Program-made: the position numbers and the translations under genes
In this document: in pieces, positions 20,027 to 29,638 of the stretch
Layout of the letters: each line of letters opens with the position of its first letter
How positions within the stretch are numbered: position 1 is the first letter of the stretch
Source: a virus
Virus record (IMG/VR): IMGVR_UViG_3300003873_000028
Coordinates: 1 to 36,605 of that record
Direction: 5' to 3' (one strand)
Length of the DNA stretch: 36,605 nucleotides
Notes under the pieces: generated by a model
What the model saw: only the letters and a program-made list of their open reading frames with translations
Told to the model about the DNA's origin: nothing
Databases searched by the model: none

Positions 20027-20546
20027 AAAAATCTCCTATGCTTTTAATATTTGTTTCATTGTTTACTTGAGTGTTTACATTTATTTGAGAATTCGAGTGC
20101 CTTTGATTTACACCTATTGTTATTGATGCTTTATCTACTGCATCAGCTAACTTTTTATAGTCGTCTGCTTGTAAGTCATATTCTACAACTTCTGCACTGC
20201 TATTACTCCCCTCGCTTTCTGTCACTATCTTTTGTGCCTTGCCTTGCTGTAGATGATTTTTCATCTTGTCAAGCAAAAGATTAGAAATTTCATCTATTTT
20301 TAATCTCTCTTTAATTACTCTTTCCACTGCATTTAATTCTAAGTGATTTTTAAGTGTTTTTTTTGCACTTTCTGCAACTACACAAATCTCAACAATATCG
20401 CTGTTTTCTTGCTGTATCCCATCAAGAATTTTCTGTGCTGTGTTCTTATCAATTTTATAGTGTTTTGCAACAGCATAATACGATTTAAATCTTCCAGTTT
20501 TCCACTCAGCAATAATCTGATTTTTTTTTCTCGTACTTAATGCCAT
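20016..20546 (-). CDS. terS: Terminase small subunit
   Basis: A 176-residue protein just upstream of the large subunit. The N-terminus KKNQIIAEWKTGRFKSYYAV (about 7-26), followed by AKHYKIDKNTAQKIL (about 27-41), is a helix-turn-helix typical of terminase small subunits that bind the pac site. A helical oligomerisation region and a Gln/Asn-rich C-terminus with 'NQRHSNSQINVNTQVNN' follow; the latter may contact the large subunit. The call is based on HTH plus position. Confidence 0.85.
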   Translation of the reverse strand: MALSTRKKNQIIAEWKTGRFKSYYAVAKHYKIDKNTAQKILDGIQQENSDIVEICVVAESAKKTLKNHLELNAVERVIKERLKIDEISNLLLDKMKNHLQQGKAQKIVTESEGSNSSAEVVEYDLQADDYKKLADAVDKASITIGVNQRHSNSQINVNTQVNNETNIKSIGDFYET

Positions 20547-20863
20547 TATTTCAAAAACTCCCCAACTTTAAACAAAGAAAAAGGACTATTTCCCTCTTCC
20601 TCACTCTTAATAATAAATTCTTTCACGAACCAAAAGAGATCTTCTTTTCTCTCTTCACTTAACCCTGCAATAACTTTCAATTCTGCTTTATATTTAACTA
20701 TCCACAAATTCGGTAAATCCCTAAGTATAAAGCACGGTCTCTGACCTGCTCCAACTGCTTTTAATGATAAAGCAGTCATTAGTGTATCATCACTAAATAT
20801 TTTAGATACGATATAAAAATCACTTATCGCAATAGCACGAGTTTTGTCTTTTAGATTTATCAT
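20546..20863 (-). CDS. Unknown 105-residue protein
   Basis: A small mixed protein I do not recognise. It starts with MINLKDKTRAIAISDFYIVS, then a hydrophobic middle with FILRDLPNLWIVKYKAELKV and a helical end with 'EERKEDLFWFVKEFIIKSEE'. No Cys motif or transmembrane segment is present. Its start overlaps the end of the small HTH-like gene by 44 bases, so a later start may be used, but no strong ribosome site is visible at either. The gene's stop meets the small terminase start. A terminase-related or regulatory role is possible only from position. Confidence 0.65.
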   Translation of the reverse strand: MINLKDKTRAIAISDFYIVSKIFSDDTLMTALSLKAVGAGQRPCFILRDLPNLWIVKYKAELKVIAGLSEERKEDLFWFVKEFIIKSEEEGNSPFSLFKVGEFLK

Positions 20864-23540: not shown

Positions 23541-23774
23541 TTATTCTCTTCTTAAAAACAATCTAAATAACAATCCGTAATTCCATAAAAAATGAAAGTT
23601 TATGTAAGGATTTGAATATCGATGTAATGATTTATACAATGAATATTTTTCGATGCTCCCATCACTTGAATATTCTTTTTTATTCGGATTACATTCTTTC
23701 TTCGATTTAAAAAATACTATCCCTATTCCATATCCTAAAATTATTATTGAAAATATTTCAGTTCGTTCTCTCAT
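23541..23774 (-). CDS. Small protein with an N-terminal hydrophobic segment
   Basis: A 77-residue protein. A hydrophobic stretch near the N-terminus (FSIIILGYGIGIVFF, about 8-22) could be one membrane segment or signal anchor. A charged, Tyr/Ser-rich middle and an aromatic end (INFHFLWNYGLLFRLFLRRE) follow. It overlaps the zinc-ribbon gene by 17 bases in another frame. I do not recognise it; the frame is less convincing than its neighbours. Confidence 0.45.
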   Translation of the reverse strand: MRERTEIFSIIILGYGIGIVFFKSKKECNPNKKEYSSDGSIEKYSLYKSLHRYSNPYINFHFLWNYGLLFRLFLRRE

Positions 23775-24291
23775 TGTTTCCTACCTCATTCTTTTTTAAA
23801 AAGTTTTTTATCATCTCATCATCTGTAAGCTTCTGCGATGCTTTAGCTTCTCTTTTTGCTTTTGCTTCCATCTCTTCACGATAAGCTCTGTTTTCGTCTC
23901 TAGCCTTTGCTATGGCTTCCTTAGAGTGTGTTCTCTTCCGTGGCTTATAAGTCTTCTCAATTTTAGGCATTTTATTATTTGTATCAATTCTAATTTTGAA
24001 TCCCATAATTTTAAAATCAAATGAATAATAACGTTTTGGATTTTTCGAGTAATATCGGCTACAATTTCGACAATAACTTGATGCCCTTTTTATCTGCACG
24101 GCTCTAACACTTGAGCATTCCGGGCAAAAATACCAATATCTAACTTTTGGTGTACTCTTTTTACGACTATAAAAGTTTGTTTCTTTTCTGAATTTTATTA
24201 AACATGACATACATCTTGAAGATTTTACGCCACTTCGATCAACTCTCTTTTTATCTCCACAATCTTTACATATTCTTATATGCTTAGTCAT
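23758..24291 (-). CDS. Unknown double zinc-ribbon protein
   Basis: A 177-residue protein with two zinc ribbons: Cys8/Cys11/Cys27/Cys30 (CKDC, CMSC) and Cys56/Cys59/Cys74/Cys77 (CPEC, CRNC). The region after residue 100 is basic and helical (KTYKPRKRTHSKEAIAKARD and on). The layout fits nucleic-acid binding or an RNA polymerase/transcription partner, but no known family is evident. It overlaps the RHH gene by eight bases, so regulator and zinc protein are made together. Confidence 0.72.
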   Translation of the reverse strand: MTKHIRICKDCGDKKRVDRSGVKSSRCMSCLIKFRKETNFYSRKKSTPKVRYWYFCPECSSVRAVQIKRASSYCRNCSRYYSKNPKRYYSFDFKIMGFKIRIDTNNKMPKIEKTYKPRKRTHSKEAIAKARDENRAYREEMEAKAKREAKASQKLTDDEMIKNFLKKNEVGNNERTN

Positions 24292-24415
24292 TGTTCATAG
24301 CTTTTTTAATAATTCTTCTTATGACATAAGCATAACTGCTATCAAGTCTATCTGCTTCTTTTTCCAAGAACTTTTTCATCTCTTCATTAATTCGTAATGC
24401 TATCGTGTGTTTCAT
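24284..24415 (-). CDS. Ribbon-helix-helix regulator (Arc-like)
   Basis: About 43 residues from ATG 24415: MKHTIALRINEEMKKFLEKE, then 'ADRLDSSYAYVIRRIIKKAM'. This is a beta strand plus two helices of the Arc/MetJ ribbon-helix-helix fold. An upstream ATG at 24466 would add 17 residues, but AAAGGA eight bases before 24415 supports the inner start. It probably represses its own promoter: an inverted repeat lies in the leader (24480-24515). Role inferred from fold and site. Confidence 0.82.
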   Translation of the reverse strand: MKHTIALRINEEMKKFLEKEADRLDSSYAYVIRRIIKKAMNND

Positions 24416-24479
24416 AGTTTTTCCTTTTGTTTTTGTATTGTAACATTGTTGAGCTTTGTAATACATTAAAAGTATTTTT

Positions 24480-24589: not shown

Positions 24590-26974
24590 TCACACTATTT
24601 TAACCCCATCTAGCGGACATAATCCCACTACTTTTATACTAATATCTGCATAGTCAATACTCTTAGATTTATATTTTATTTTATTATTTTCTTTATCTAT
24701 CATCTCAATTTTAACAAGCGATAAAACAAGTTTATAAAACATATCAATACTGTATTTTTTACCATTTCTTTTATTAACTTTATTGTATTTAGTTTTTATA
24801 TCTTGAGCTATTCTGCTTCTCGTATAAACTTTTTTAAAATTAATAAATTCATTCATCTTTGCCATTTTGTAAATAAGTCCACTCTCATAATGTACTGACC
24901 ATTTATGAAATCTAACTTTATTACTTTCAGGATATTCCCAAAGAGTTCCATCACTCATGGTATGCCGTCCTCTTTTTTCTTCCTCTTCCTCGTCCTCTTG
25001 ACTTGTTTTCAAATCAATTTTTAAAATCTCTTCTGTGCCTTTATATTCTTTAAAATTATAAAAATCACTATCATAGTTATTTCTAGTTAAATATGCTAAA
25101 TAACAAGCTATCCCATAATTATCAACTTTTTTATAGTGATTAACTCCAGCACTCGTCTTAATCAAGTTGGAATAGAATTCTCCAAAAACTGCATTAAAAT
25201 CTATCTCATTTGTCATAAGCTCTTCTGCATAAGATTTCCACCATTCTATGCTTAAAAACTTAGTATATTGTTCCTTCGGTTTTTCGGATACTATCCTAAG
25301 AGTGTCTTCTAATCTCACTCTATGCACTGCTTGAATAATATCTTTTGTACTCCATAGAGATGTAGTTTTTGAATATACCATACAAGCTTTGAAGTTTGTA
25401 TTTTTAATTGATACACCCTCTCTAAGCGCTGATGTTGCATATACATATGGCTCTTGTGTCGTATTTATATCTACATTCTTATGCTTCCTCTTCGTGCTTG
25501 TTACACAACAATTAGAATAGTTTTGTTCTATTGCCTTTGCATTTTCAACAAAAATCAAACTACCATCAATTTTAGGAAGTTCTCCGTGATTTGTATAATA
25601 AATAATTTCAGGTTTTACAGGTCTATATTTGTATCTCTGCAAATCAGGTCTAAAAAACTTTTCAACTGTCCCGGACATAAACACTGCATCTAAGTTATAG
25701 ATAACTTTGTGCATTTGAATAGCTATACTAAGCAAAATATGAGCTTCATCAACAATAATTTTTATCTCTTTCGAGTCTATTAATTCCTTGAATTCAGTAT
25801 TTCGAGTGTAATGCCCATAAAATTTATTATAAGTTACAATACTACCATGAGTGAATGTTTGATTTAATAAGTAATCGGCATCATCGCCGACTAATACATT
25901 AGCCTGAATAGTTCTCGGTACTAATATCATGATGTTTGGTTTATTCTCATATTGAAAAGTCTTACCACTTCCAGTTCTAGCCACTGTAACACCAGTTTCT
26001 ATATCAATTATTTGTGGGTATTGTGTATAATAGTCAATAACTATCTCTTTGCGATTAACTTTCTTTTGCTCTTCATTAACTGGAATTTGTGGCATTACAA
26101 ACTTGAGTTTATTCTGTATCTCTTCGTGTGTAATGTCGGCTATATCTTGACAATCTTCAACACTAAAATCTATATTTATAGGCTGAGCAAGTGGTAAAAA
26201 CTCTTTTATATCAAGAAGTGCATGATAGCCTGCTTCGTCTCGGTCTGCCCATATATAGACATCATTCCGACCTTGTAACGGACTCCAATCGGTTTTTTTA
26301 ACTGTATTTGAACCACCTGCCCAACTTACAACACTATATCCCTCTACTTTAACATTCCCTGCTTTTTCGCCTTCCACTATCAAGATGGGCAAATCTCTAA
26401 TAAGCTCTTTGTGATAAAGAGCTCTATTAAATGGGACTCCTTTCCATTTCCACATTATTATGCCATTTTTAATGTTTCTTCTGTAAGTGAGAGGTCGTAT
26501 ATCTTTACTGCCATCTGCGTTTAAATATCGCATAATATAAAAATTTTCGTATTTATATTTAGCTATAGGGTAGCCAAGTTCAAAGTGTTTTCCACTCGGC
26601 TCGACTTGAGGAAGCGGTAGTACTTCCCACTCGTCATCTTCAGCATATTCATTTTTTACTTTTGTATATTCTGCATTTCGTGCATATTCACTAATTGTAC
26701 TATTACTAACAAGTGCGTCGTATGCTTCACTATTTTTACAACCAAATAAATAGGCATAAAGTGTTATTAAATTACCACCACTCGCACCATCTGCAAAATC
26801 GCTCCATTTTCCATTCTGCAAATTGATAGAAAATGAACCGATTTTTTTGTCTGAACGAGTAGGATTCAATGCCTTGTACTCGTGTCCTGCTCGTTTACCG
26901 TCGGGTAACCATGTTTGTAAAATGCTTTCTATCCCAAGAAGTAGCTCTTGAGCCAAACTGTCATAGTTACGCAT
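24590..26974 (-). CDS. TOPRIM primase-like / SF2 helicase fusion
   Basis: A 794-residue protein. An N-terminal primase-like region with GSFSINLQNGKWSDFADGAS (46-65) lacks zinc cysteines. A TOPRIM domain has VEGEKAG (200-206, catalytic Glu201) and WADRDEAG (242-249, DxD). A superfamily-2 helicase follows: Walker A ARTGSGKT (332-339), DEAH (409-412), SGT (434-436) and motif VI QAVHRVR (548-554). A typical phage primase-helicase pairs TOPRIM with a DnaB-like SF4 motor, so this SF2 pairing is unusual. A C-terminal charged region (about 660-675) and helix bundle follow. It is likely the replication initiator or primase; the pseudoknot-terminator precedes it. Confidence 0.88.
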   Translation of the reverse strand: MRNYDSLAQELLLGIESILQTWLPDGKRAGHEYKALNPTRSDKKIGSFSINLQNGKWSDFADGASGGNLITLYAYLFGCKNSEAYDALVSNSTISEYARNAEYTKVKNEYAEDDEWEVLPLPQVEPSGKHFELGYPIAKYKYENFYIMRYLNADGSKDIRPLTYRRNIKNGIIMWKWKGVPFNRALYHKELIRDLPILIVEGEKAGNVKVEGYSVVSWAGGSNTVKKTDWSPLQGRNDVYIWADRDEAGYHALLDIKEFLPLAQPINIDFSVEDCQDIADITHEEIQNKLKFVMPQIPVNEEQKKVNRKEIVIDYYTQYPQIIDIETGVTVARTGSGKTFQYENKPNIMILVPRTIQANVLVGDDADYLLNQTFTHGSIVTYNKFYGHYTRNTEFKELIDSKEIKIIVDEAHILLSIAIQMHKVIYNLDAVFMSGTVEKFFRPDLQRYKYRPVKPEIIYYTNHGELPKIDGSLIFVENAKAIEQNYSNCCVTSTKRKHKNVDINTTQEPYVYATSALREGVSIKNTNFKACMVYSKTTSLWSTKDIIQAVHRVRLEDTLRIVSEKPKEQYTKFLSIEWWKSYAEELMTNEIDFNAVFGEFYSNLIKTSAGVNHYKKVDNYGIACYLAYLTRNNYDSDFYNFKEYKGTEEILKIDLKTSQEDEEEEEKRGRHTMSDGTLWEYPESNKVRFHKWSVHYESGLIYKMAKMNEFINFKKVYTRSRIAQDIKTKYNKVNKRNGKKYSIDMFYKLVLSLVKIEMIDKENNKIKYKSKSIDYADISIKVVGLCPLDGVKIV

Positions 26975-27010
26975 TATTATAAATTAAATTGATTTTTTTT
27001 AACATGAAGG

Positions 27011-27076
27011 CTCCTACACCAAAAAATTATTTTAAAGAATAGTAGGGTGTAGGAGTTCTACTATTCCTTAAAATAA
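27011..27076 (-). terminator. Terminator with loop-to-tail pseudoknot
   Basis: On the minus strand, a 19-base arm (27076-27058) pairs with 27045-27027 (18 Watson-Crick pairs and one G-U), loop of 12 bases, followed by six T's (27026-27021): a strong intrinsic terminator after the helicase gene. The loop carries CTCCTACACC (27055-27046), and the sequence right after the U-tract, 27020-27011, is its perfect complement (GGTGTAGGAG). The four arms interleave as an H-type pseudoknot. The 10-bp pairing can form with the hairpin only after transcription reads past the U-tract. A regulated read-through or RNA-binding role is inferred. Confidence 0.85.
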
Positions 27077-27101: not shown

Positions 27102-28670
27102 TTAATTTCTTCTTTTTAACATACTGCTAGCAATTCCACCAAGCACCCAGCCGTTGCTAGTATAGAATTTAATTGCCTTTTTTACTTCATCTACCGTAAA
27201 ATTCTCATTTTGTAATGTTTCTATCACTCTTCTAGCCCAAAAATGATGATACTTTTTTCCGTATTTGTCTTTTGCCTTTCTAAGCTCTTTATGCAAATCT
27301 TCCCAAGTTTCAACACTATCTGTCTGTACTTCCAATAATTTCTCTTCAAGTTCTGCATCTATTGACTCTAACTCTCTAAAAACTTTTTTATGTTTACAGT
27401 GGGGGCATTCAGAATATACAATAATATTACCTTCATCTATCTCTGTTATAGTCTTCGCAGTGCCTTTTTTAATATGCTCCTCGCACTCTTCGCAAAAAGT
27501 AAGCTCGTCGATTTTCTCTTCACTCTTTATATCGATATTCCCACATTTATCGCATTTTGATACTGTCTCAACATAGTATATATTCCTTTCGTTTGGAATT
27601 GAAGCCGTTTTTTTAATCACTTTCATAGTTCCATCACAGAGCTTACACTTTATGACTTTTTTAGTAGGCTCTTTTGTAAAATCTAGCTTTTGGTATGGAT
27701 GTACCGTATCATCTATTACATTAGAACAATCAAGTATTAGAGCTACTTTATCAGGATTTTTAGGGTCAAGGCGTGTTATCCTGCCATAGATTTGCACTGC
27801 TTTAATAATTGATTTAGTGGGTGTTGCTAAGACTGCACAATAGATGTTGGAAACATCGACGCCAGTCGTTAATGACTCGACACTCACAAGAATATCGACT
27901 TTATTATCTTTAAAATCTTTAAAAATAATATCTTTATTTTTTAGCTTTGAATGGTAGGAACTCGCATTATATCCCTCTGCCGTAAGCTCTGCTACAATCA
28001 ATTCTGCATGTTCGATATTCACTGCATAAAATACAGATTTTAAGCCGTGAGCATGCTTTATATACTTCTGTACTACATCACTAATTATACTGGATTTCGT
28101 AACCTCTTCCCCTACATCTTTTTGATTATAGTCCCCTCCAACTGTTTTAAAATGGCTTCTATCTATTGACATTGGAGCAAGCACTTTGACTGGAGATGCA
28201 AAACCTAAATCAACTAAATCTTTTAATTGCACGACATCTATAACATCATTCCAACCCTCTAACCGTTCCCCTTTTGATGTAATAGGTGTAGCAGATAAAC
28301 CTATTATAATCGCATTTGGATATTTTGATAATACTTTGTCCTGCATCGGAGAGTTTGCACCAAAATGAGCTTCATCTAAAATGACTATTTTAATATTATC
28401 ATGTAATCTGTTTTTAGATGTTTGTATAGTTTCAACTGCTACATTATTACAATCACTAAGTGTTTCAATCATTTGTTTAATGAGTATAGTTCGGTGAGCT
28501 AACATCAAACTATTATTATTCTTTGCTTCTGCCATCTTTACAATCTCTCTTATAATGAGTGATTTTCCTGCACCAGTCGCAAGTGACAATAACACTTTTT
28601 TATTCCCTGCTTTTAAAGAGCTTCGTAGTTGAACTATTGCATCTTTTTGATATTCTCTGAGTTTCTTCAT
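27102..28670 (-). CDS. SF2 DEAH helicase with two C-terminal zinc ribbons
   Basis: A 522-residue ResIII/UvsW-type helicase. REYQKDAIVQL starts the Q-like motif, Walker A is ATGAGKS (31-37), DEAH 99-102, SATP 126-129 and motif VI QIYGRITR (293-300). After about residue 335 come two CxxC pairs of pairs: Cys342/345/373/376 and Cys393/396/422/425. The family helps restart or unwind phage DNA, and the zinc region probably adds DNA or protein contacts. It overlaps the upstream RHH gene by four bases (ATGA) and ends before the pseudoknot-terminator. Confidence 0.92.
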   Translation of the reverse strand: MKKLREYQKDAIVQLRSSLKAGNKKVLLSLATGAGKSLIIREIVKMAEAKNNNSLMLAHRTILIKQMIETLSDCNNVAVETIQTSKNRLHDNIKIVILDEAHFGANSPMQDKVLSKYPNAIIIGLSATPITSKGERLEGWNDVIDVVQLKDLVDLGFASPVKVLAPMSIDRSHFKTVGGDYNQKDVGEEVTKSSIISDVVQKYIKHAHGLKSVFYAVNIEHAELIVAELTAEGYNASSYHSKLKNKDIIFKDFKDNKVDILVSVESLTTGVDVSNIYCAVLATPTKSIIKAVQIYGRITRLDPKNPDKVALILDCSNVIDDTVHPYQKLDFTKEPTKKVIKCKLCDGTMKVIKKTASIPNERNIYYVETVSKCDKCGNIDIKSEEKIDELTFCEECEEHIKKGTAKTITEIDEGNIIVYSECPHCKHKKVFRELESIDAELEEKLLEVQTDSVETWEDLHKELRKAKDKYGKKYHHFWARRVIETLQNENFTVDEVKKAIKFYTSNGWVLGGIASSMLKRRN

Positions 28671-28813
28671 CTCTTTAATACTTTTTTCAATCGCTCCTCA
28701 ACCGCACGTCTGACAAATTTAGACGGCGTTGTTTCTTCCTTAATTGCCACTAACTCTAAATCCCTTTTAACTTTTGGTTCTAATATAACTGTAAACCTTA
28801 TACCTCTCGCCAT
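28667..28813 (-). CDS. Ribbon-helix-helix regulator
   Basis: A 48-residue protein (ATG 28813, TGA 28667-28669). The sequence MARGIRFTVILEPKVKRDLE, then 'LVAIKEETTPSKFVRRAVEE', is strand-helix-helix as in the Arc/CopG fold, with 'TPSKFVRRAV' as the second helix. The ribosome site AAAGGA precedes it. Encoded first in the helicase operon and adjacent to the divergent palindrome, it may bind there and set both transcripts. That link is inferred. Confidence 0.85.
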   Translation of the reverse strand: MARGIRFTVILEPKVKRDLELVAIKEETTPSKFVRRAVEERLKKVLKR

Positions 28814-28825
28814 TTTTTTTCCTTT

Positions 28826-28849
28826 ATTATTTTATTATTTTATTATTTT
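28826..28849. repeat. Three tandem 8-base repeats
   Basis: ATTATTTT occurs three times head to tail in the leader of the RHH gene. The region is nearly pure A/T and may help DNA opening. Confidence 0.7.
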
Positions 28850-28873
28850 ATTTTACCTTTATTATTATAAGAA

Positions 28874-28917
28874 GTAGCTTAAATGATTATAATAAATATT
28901 ATAATATTTTAAGCTAC
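28874..28917. promoter_or_regulatory. Large palindrome in the divergent promoter region
   Basis: Outer arms GTAGCTTAAA (28874-28883) and TTTAAGCTAC (28908-28917) are perfectly inverted. Two ATTATAAT boxes sit symmetrically inside, and these read as TATAAT-type -10 boxes on either strand. The gap between 28813 and 28973 holds this site plus more TATAAT boxes (28922-28927, 28936-28941). It could be a two-way promoter/operator, or an AT-rich opening site. Confidence 0.65.
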
Positions 28918-28972
28918 ATTTTATAATTATTATATTATAATTTGACTATCAAAACAACAAAAGGAATAAAAG

Positions 28973-29110
28973 ATGGAAAACGAAATAAAACAGAAATTAG
29001 CAAACAATGAAGACTTAAACAAAGAGGAAATATCTTTTTTGTTAAAAAATGCTAAAAGAGAAGATGACTTTTTAACAATATTGTCTACTTTTGTTTTGGT
29101 TGAAGAATAA
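28973..29110 (+). CDS. Unknown small acidic-basic helical protein
   Basis: A 45-residue helical protein (starts MENEIKQKLANNEDLNKEEI, ends STFVLVEE). First gene of the plus-strand cassette, with an AAAGGAATAAAAG ribosome site before the ATG. Helices carry alternating charges (NKEEISFLLKNAKREDDFL), so it could be a small protein-protein regulator. No family recognised. Confidence 0.78.
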   Translation: MENEIKQKLANNEDLNKEEISFLLKNAKREDDFLTILSTFVLVEE

Positions 29111-29130
29111 AATTGTTAAACCCCTCATAG

Positions 29131-29148
29131 AGCCACTTACGAGTGGCT
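29131..29148 (+). terminator. Hairpin terminator after first plus-strand gene
   Basis: AGCCACT (29131-29137), loop TACG, AGTGGCT (29142-29148), followed by TTGTTG: a GC-bearing stem with a modest U tract. It follows the 45-residue gene by 20 bases and could attenuate the downstream cassette. Confidence 0.6.
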
Positions 29149-29154
29149 TTGTTG

Positions 29155-29247
29155 AGCAGTTTAACTGCTTGAGTAACAAAACAAAGAGAGAATTTCACAA
29201 AGTGCTAAAATCGGTGGCTTGAATTACTCCGACCTCTTTTGTTTTTT
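29155..29247 (+). other. Structured RNA candidate before the zinc mini-gene
   Basis: After the first hairpin comes a second (AGCAGT 29155-29160 with ACTGCT 29164-29169). A longer-range pairing AAAACAAAGAG (29178-29188) with CTCTTTTGTTTT (29234-29245, one bulge) then encloses a small CAC/GTG stem and a TCGG/CCGA stem, ending in a T-run. The order looks like a multi-branch leader or small RNA. It is not a tRNA: no anticodon or D arm fits. Evidence is pairing by eye only. Confidence 0.3.
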
Positions 29248-29475
29248 AGATTAAAGTTTAGAGGAATTGAAACGTACAAGAATTATATAATAAAGCAGAA
29301 TGACAGTAAAGCAAACTTCCCTATTACTGATGGAAGACAAGATTTTTTTGATGTTTCACAAACATACAAATATAACCCACTCGGTTATGCAGAGGAAAAT
29401 TGTAATGTGTGTGGCATTAGATTGAGTCATAGAAATGCGATGCCATACTGTAATAATCCAGATTGTAAAGGTTAA
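29239..29475 (+). CDS. Small zinc-finger protein, start uncertain
   Basis: The frame to 29475 ends with CNVCGIRLSHRNAMPYCNNP and DC: a Cys4 zinc finger (CxxC...CxxxxC) with 'K' tail. TTG 29239 is the first usual start, but ACG at 29272 follows AGAGG seven bases upstream and is directly followed by the same TACAAGAATTAT as the next gene's ATG start, so translation could begin there (67 residues). Frame use is coding-like from the YKNY stretch on. Function unknown, probably nucleic-acid or protein binding. Confidence 0.55.
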   Translation: MFFRLKFRGIETYKNYIIKQNDSKANFPITDGRQDFFDVSQTYKYNPLGYAEENCNVCGIRLSHRNAMPYCNNPDCKG

Positions 29476-29478
29476 ACA

Positions 29479-29622
29479 ATGTACAAGAATTATGTAACAA
29501 GAGAGAAGTATGAGGGGAAATGGGTAAACACCTATTTCTCAACGATGAAAGAAGCGAAAACGTTAATGAGAAAGATAATGCGAAATGGTGGCATTGCCAT
29601 ATGCCTAAGAGCAGCTTATTAA
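29479..29622 (+). CDS. Small basic protein
   Basis: A 47-residue basic protein (starts MYKNYVTREKYEGKWVNTYF, ends GGIAICLRAAY). AAAGG lies seven bases before the ATG. It shares YKNY and its DNA with the preceding mini-gene's start. No named family. The middle helix (STMKEAKTLMRKIMRNGG) is positively charged, suggesting nucleic-acid contact. Confidence 0.72.
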   Translation: MYKNYVTREKYEGKWVNTYFSTMKEAKTLMRKIMRNGGIAICLRAAY

Positions 29623-29638
29623 AAAAAAGGAAAAGATT

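What the first reader, a model, noticed from the sequence alone, without database searches (positions are those of the whole stretch)
27011..27076. Intrinsic terminator whose loop is perfectly complementary to the bases right after its U-tract
A 19-pair stem (one G-U on the transcribed strand, none broken) with T6 forms a strong terminator between the helicase and the primase-helicase fusion. Ten loop bases CTCCTACACC pair perfectly with GGTGTAGGAG just downstream, interleaving the arms as an H-type pseudoknot. The single mismatch is a G-U only in minus-strand RNA, which points to RNA function. This could be a read-through sensor, an exonuclease-resistant 3' end, or a protein-binding RNA controlling primase expression, and I know no named element with this layout.
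Basis: partly seen in the sequence, partly recalled or inferred. Interest (0 to 1): 0.78.

Follow-up and report, generated by a model that had tools for sequence, protein, structure and literature searches.

The report
Phage primase leader RNA pseudoknot
Between two DNA-replication genes of an uncultured phage lies a long RNA hairpin whose loop matches, base for base, the ribosome-binding site of a tiny reading frame that overlaps the start of the next gene; it is probably an RNA switch on primase production, and related phages carry a conserved RNA with a similar loop-to-start-site layout in front of a tail gene.

Summary
Chance is a poor explanation. The likeliest role is control of primase translation by loop-SD pairing; the hairpin plus T6 may also attenuate transcription. 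No homologue of this leader was found, so covariation at this locus is untested. An architecture scan of structurally related phages did find a strongly covarying RNA family, absent from Rfam, between the tail-tube and tail-assembly-chaperone genes: a long hairpin whose 12-nt loop pairs with a downstream arm and with a second copy overlapping the chaperone SD. The window element shares the topology but fails that family's membership tests (covariance-model score 6.1 bits). Verdict: a real, probably regulatory RNA, a new variant of SD-pairing pseudoknot operators. The terminator call is plausible but unproven; sensor and exonuclease-resistance readings have no support.

The parts
27102..28670 (-). 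upstream gene: SF2 DNA helicase, 522 aa; its stop is 25 nt before the hairpin
   Evidence: Pfam ResIII, Helicase_C; phrog_16 DNA helicase 5e-74
27058..27076 (-). S1 5' arm (27077 adds a G-U pair)
27046..27057 (-). 12-nt apical loop AACTCCTACACC; 27046-27055 is the S2 5' arm (anti-SD)
27027..27045 (-). S1 3' arm
27021..27026 (-). T6: U-tract of a possible terminator and/or flexible linker to S2
27011..27020 (-). S2 3' arm GGTGTAGGAG; its last five bases (27015-27011) are the Shine-Dalgarno AGGAG
26967..27005 (-). 12-codon leader ORF MLKKINLIYNNA*, ATG 5 nt after AGGAG; its TAA (26969-26967) lies within the first codons of the primase gene (ATGCGTAAC)
   Evidence: sequence printed; SD energy -6.5 vs -1.3 kcal/mol for the primase start
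24590..26974 (-). downstream gene: primase (TOPRIM-type N-terminal part, residues about 1-290) fused to an SF2-like helicase part (TGSGKT...VDEAH), 794 aa; no SD directly before its ATG
   Evidence: phrog_239 primase/helicase 1e-8, phrog_4762; tblastn to phage primase/helicases; alignment A9

Best explanation
A cis-acting leader RNA controls primase expression in the minus-strand replication operon. Transcripts that pass the helicase gene fold into the S1 hairpin (shown thermodynamically). Its loop carries an anti-SD that pairs with GGUGUAGGAG six bases beyond the stem (complementarity shown). While S2 is paired, the only good SD of the leader is hidden, so the 12-codon ORF and, through its overlapping stop (ATGCGTAA), the SD-less primase start are translated poorly (inferred). 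Anything that opens S1 or captures its loop (a ribosome, RNase III, a replication protein, falling Mg2+) would free the SD and raise primase synthesis (inferred, factor unknown). S1 followed by U6 may also end part of the transcripts, so that read-through and SD release act in series (possible, untested).
For: The layout is exact and far from chance. The S2 3' arm coincides with the only SD between the two genes, correctly spaced 5 nt from an ATG, in a phage whose genes mostly use AGGA/GGAG SDs. The primase start has one of the weakest SD scores in the window (-1.3 kcal/mol) and overlaps the leader ORF stop. S2 as a helix is about -17 kcal/mol and the upper 11 bp of S1 about -10, so a pseudoknot with the AU-rich lower stem open is energetically reasonable (rough estimate, no pseudoknot program used). 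Phages of the same structural lineage hold an independent conserved RNA with the same topology and a second arm copy overlapping the downstream SD: over P1, P2, P3 and S2a, 30 of 33 pairs show two-sided changes, 0/500 shuffles as high; own loop versus own downstream arm beats permuted partners, 0/20000 for each arm. L072:11408-11477 is another intergenic case (17-bp stem, 12-nt loop, 9-nt complement at a start region).
Against: No comparative evidence at this locus: no homologous leader was found. No expression data. The 12-codon ORF is conjectural; several other genes of the window also lack an SD (24284, 20546, 23758), so the primase could start without one. Full S1 and full S2 cannot coexist sterically. 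In the nested ensemble the last three SD bases already pair partly with GGCUC in the primase coding region.
Confidence: 0.55

Rival explanations
1. An ordinary intrinsic terminator at the end of the helicase gene; the loop-SD complementarity is a coincidence or a by-product of short inverted duplication.
For: Stem directly followed by T6 between two genes. Ordinary terminators occur at such places in a relative, e.g. L040 after the tail-tube gene.
Against: A perfect 10-nt match of a 12-nt loop within 40 nt is expected about 1e-4 times, and it lands on the SD. A strong terminator would cut off the primase, for which no promoter stands out: the -35/-10-like match at 27002-26973 is 9 of 12 and such matches are as frequent as in shuffles.
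Confidence: 0.2
2. An RNA processing or stability element: the 20-bp stem is an RNase III site or a 3' barrier that protects the helicase mRNA, as intergenic hairpins of T7-like phages do (own knowledge).
For: Nearly perfect 19-20 bp stem in an intergenic region.
Against: Does not explain the loop-SD complementarity.
Confidence: 0.1
3. A DNA-level element: interleaved palindromes serve as an origin or protein-binding site near the replication genes, or arose by template switching.
For: Lies between helicase and primase; inverted repeats are symmetric on both strands.
Against: GC skew changes sign near 28.5-30 kb at the divergent promoter region, not here. No iterons seen. The SD/ATG fit and T6 are strand-specific.
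Confidence: 0.1
4. The terminated transcript is a 3'-derived small RNA whose CU-rich terminator loop acts in trans on SDs of other mRNAs.
For: CUCC in a terminator loop resembles the seed regions of anti-SD small RNAs (own knowledge).
Against: No second perfect GTGTAGGAG target in the window outside the element itself, and the one-mismatch matches are not ribosome-binding sites. The perfect target is in cis.
Confidence: 0.05

Closest known systems
Tail-tube/tail-chaperone leader RNA of related phages
   Same: Intergenic long hairpin, 12-nt loop, short U/A-rich linker, loop complementary to a downstream arm close to or overlapping the SD of the next gene
   Different: Window element lies between helicase and primase, has an uninterrupted stem (no 5-nt 5' bulge), only one downstream arm, no start-site hairpin P3, no CCGGCC loop; not matched by the covariance model (6.1 bits)
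T4-type gene 32 autoregulatory pseudoknot (PMC3014915)
   Same: H-type pseudoknot in the leader of a phage replication gene, controlling translation initiation
   Different: T4 pseudoknot lies 67 nt upstream of the start and nucleates gp32 binding over an unstructured RBS; here the pseudoknot arm itself is the SD
LEU element of actinobacterial leuA (PMC1262725)
   Same: Leader peptide, pseudoknot and pairing with the SD in one leader
   Different: There a run of leucine codons in the leader peptide pairs with the SD; here the leader ORF follows the structure and has no codon run
IncI-alpha/IncB plasmid repZ control (own knowledge, no describing paper in the held library)
   Same: Replication protein made through a coupled leader peptide and a loop-to-downstream pseudoknot
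   Different: There the pseudoknot activates and an antisense RNA inhibits; no antisense RNA is seen here

Membership tests
   6.1 bits, E 0.08 in 301 bases; members score 23-112 bits
   Window tube and chaperone genes are 14 nt apart; the element is 25 nt after the helicase stop
   Stem is uninterrupted; one arm only
Intrinsic (Rho-independent) terminator | Stable stem directly followed by a U-tract | tested here: met
   20 bp, T6
Intrinsic (Rho-independent) terminator | Compact GC-rich stem with loop of 3-8 nt; transcript 3' end at the U-tract | tested here: inconclusive
   Loop is 12 nt, stem base is A-U; not listed by the scan; no transcript data
Gene 32-type pseudoknot operator | Two interleaved helices upstream of the start codon | tested here: inconclusive
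   Complementarity present; coexistence of both helices not shown; no homologues to test covariation
Gene 32-type pseudoknot operator | Binding by the gene product and autoregulation | not testable with these tools
   needs protein-RNA binding
Leader-peptide attenuator (LEU, trp type) | Regulatory codon run in the leader peptide | tested here: not met
   MLKKINLIYNNA has no codon run
Any Rfam 15 family | Match at gathering score | tested here: not met
   None in the window; best weak hits are chance miRNA hairpins

The most novel reading that the evidence does not exclude
Loop-to-start-site hairpins are a recurring, so far undescribed class of phage gene-expression switch: a long intergenic hairpin offers a 12-nt loop that pairs with one or two downstream arms at the next gene's ribosome-binding site. 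They would have arisen independently in front of replication (primase) and tail (chaperone) genes, and would set expression ratios within operons, possibly in response to ribosomes ending translation just upstream.
Probability: 0.35. Interest if true: 0.72.

Novelty: new variant of a known kind. Interest (0 to 1): 0.52.

Why it matters
SD-pairing structures are common, but one in which the loop of a terminator-like hairpin reaches over its U-tract to cover the SD of a coupling ORF, in front of a replication primase, is not a named element. A covarying RNA of the same topology in related phages makes the design testable by simple reporters and suggests that phage operons set ratios such as tube to chaperone, or helicase to primase, by RNA folding alone. 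The gene 32 review cited here stated in 2010 that the T4-type pseudoknot might be the only viral example used in autoregulation of translation (PMC3014915).

Tried and rejected
Searches for homologues of the primase in viral contigs and genomes found nothing usable, nor did the helicase search give close relatives. The Erf-like gene gave none; the terminase gave one 69-kb relative (L193) without the replication module. A direct DNA pattern AGTAGNNCTCCTACACC in viral contigs gave 33 matches, none with the architecture. Leaders of distant primases (30-40% identity) show no comparable hairpin. The idea that the related-phage hairpin is a frameshift or stop-readthrough stimulator was considered because it starts 4-9 nt after the tube stop, and dropped: the frames after the stop close quickly and the frame relation of the two genes varies (L064 same frame, L070 different). 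Frameshifting from the 12-codon ORF into the primase was rejected (in-frame stop after the A8 run, from the sequence). A first MFE-based parse of the leaders misassigned several and was redone (L183 is still misparsed there). RNAalifold on the raw MAFFT alignment failed because MAFFT shifted the stem arms; a small hand-structured alignment and covariance model solved it.

Full report
OBSERVATION. The sequence at 27011-27076 is as described. Read on the minus strand, the order is: helicase stop (27102), 25 nt, S1 5' arm (27076-27058), loop AACTCCTACACC (27057-27046), S1 3' arm (27045-27027), T6 (27026-27021), GGTGTAGGAG (27020-27011), CCTTC, ATG (27005). S1 has 19 pairs plus a closing G-U. The RNA folds at -23.1 kcal/mol, z -4.3. 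The S2 10-mers occur nowhere else in the window. In dinucleotide-based shuffles, hairpins of 18 bp or more occur 0.03 times per window and a 10-nt complement of this loop within 40 nt is expected 5.6e-5 times. The window was picked by a reader looking for oddities, so these numbers are not formal P values, but the joint expectation is of the order of 1e-6 to 1e-5 per window.

The downstream arm is a ribosome-binding site. AGGAG (27015-27011) sits 5 nt before ATG (27005) of a 12-codon ORF, MLKKINLIYNNA*, whose TAA lies inside the first codons of the primase gene (ATGCGTAAC, start 26974). Most genes of this phage have AGGA/GGAG before the start; the primase start does not (-1.3 kcal/mol against the anti-SD, among the weakest of about 50 starts), while the leader ORF does (-6.5). 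So the loop CUCCUACACC is an anti-SD, and S2 would hide the only SD in the leader. This also fixes the strand better than the single G-U: on the plus strand S2 even gains two G-U pairs and there is no evident gene to serve.

THE FLANKING GENES. Upstream is an SF2 helicase (Pfam ResIII/Helicase_C, phrog_16). Downstream is a primase with an N-terminal part shared with phage primase/helicases and a C-terminal part with Walker A (TGSGKT) and VDEAH motifs (sequence).

SEARCH FOR HOMOLOGUES. The primase finds no usable relative in IMG/VR or GTDB genomes nor in phages that share the capsid gene. The phage itself has close structural relatives (L039, L040, L193), but these records lack this replication module or are fragments. 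Covariation at the locus therefore cannot be tested now.

A RELATED ARCHITECTURE IN RELATED PHAGES. A scan for 'hairpin whose loop is complementary to the next few dozen bases' over 1.6 Mb of fetched loci gave 27 hits against 4 in shuffled sequence. Besides the window element, the one site that recurred (seven of the 27) was the gap between the tail-tube and tail-assembly-chaperone genes (PF11681, PF21822) of phages related through the major head protein. Collecting chaperone leaders gave 35 distinct sequences. All but a few share a lower stem P1 starting 4-9 nt after the tube stop codon, a bulge of about 5 nt on the 5' side only, an upper stem P2, a loop of about 12 nt (typically GAUCCCGGCCUA), a U/A-rich linker, an arm S2a (UAGGCCGG), and a small hairpin P3 (UAAACU...AGUUUA) just before the ATG, whose loop holds a second copy S2b overlapping the SD (GGACCGGAG). 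A covariance model found each leader once per phage. On 27 sequences, 93.6% of cells are standard pairs against 72.2% in shuffles; 30 of 33 pairs have two-sided changes; no shuffle or slid version comes close (the alignment was fitted to P1-P3, which favours them). S2a alone is weaker, since the loop is conserved, but still exceeds shuffles (score 2/500); on all 35 leaders own loop pairs better with own arms than with permuted ones, 0/20000 for S2a and for S2b. Distant members change loop and both arms together: CCAGCC with GGCUGG twice (L044, L184), CCGAUC with GAUCGG twice (L172). Related sequences are not independent, so the counts are not probabilities, but these concerted changes are hard to explain otherwise. 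No Rfam family matches. I found no paper describing it in the held library.

IS THE WINDOW ELEMENT A MEMBER? No. It scores 6.1 bits (members 23-112), lies elsewhere, has no bulge, no P3 and no second arm. It works like them at most: hairpin, 12-nt loop, U-rich linker, loop complementary to an arm at the next start site. L072:11408-11477 is a further intergenic case with an uninterrupted 17-bp stem. The parallel raises the prior that the window layout is functional; it does not prove it.

MECHANISM. Shown: the sequences, complementarity, SD, overlap of ORFs, and hairpin stability. Inferred: S2 forms in the mRNA and represses the leader ORF and, by coupling, the primase; release by an unknown factor. 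Geometry limits the structure: six U cannot bridge 20 bp, so the lower, A-U-rich half of S1 must open. Upper S1 (11 bp, -10.4 kcal/mol) plus S2 (about -17 as a duplex) is comparable to or better than full S1 (-18.6 to -20.6) after a pseudoknot penalty; no pseudoknot program was run. Alternatively S1 and S2 exclude each other and form a two-state switch. Whether U6 terminates is open: it may be only the linker.

COMPARISON. Mechanistic cousins are the T4 gene 32 pseudoknot operator (PMC3014915) and the LEU element (PMC1262725), and, from own knowledge, the repZ/repY control of IncI-alpha plasmids. None has this arrangement; none was shown to be homologous.

VERDICT. Real, non-random, probably a translational control element for the primase, at most partly a terminator. 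New variant of a known kind. Interest is moderate for the single locus and higher for the class it may belong to.

Noticed in passing
L136:1396-1503 and 34 other leaders listed (e.g. L064:9424-9531, L044:15180-15291): Conserved, covarying RNA between tail-tube and tail-assembly-chaperone genes of many uncultured phages: stop codon, 4-9 nt, bulged long hairpin, loop complementary to two downstream copies, the second overlapping the chaperone SD in hairpin P3. Not in Rfam; looks like a bistable translational switch.
   Followed up: partly
L124:337-433: Member of that RNA family found only by the covariance model (E 0.09), before another chaperone-like start ATGTCGTGTAAAGTTGAA; loop TACCCGGCACA with arms TGCCGGGTA and TGTCGGGAG.
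   Followed up: partly
L072:11408-11477: Second hairpin of similar layout in the same phage, near the capsid gene: uninterrupted 17-bp stem, 12-nt loop, 9-nt complement TGAGTAATA at a possible TTG start (11468).
   Followed up: partly
L040:7653-7749: The close structural relative of the window phage has a plain terminator-like hairpin (TAATAGCCCATCTTCGGGCTATTA) between tail-tube and chaperone genes instead of the pseudoknot RNA; the window has only 14 nt there.
   Followed up: no
window 28850-28941: Long imperfect palindrome (45-nt arms, 78%) in the divergent intergenic region 28671-29638, where GC skew changes sign: candidate operator or origin.
   Followed up: no
window 20546-20863, 23758-24291, 24284-24466: Several genes besides the primase lack any Shine-Dalgarno (duplex energy near or above zero), so SD-less starts are not unique to the primase.
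   Followed up: no
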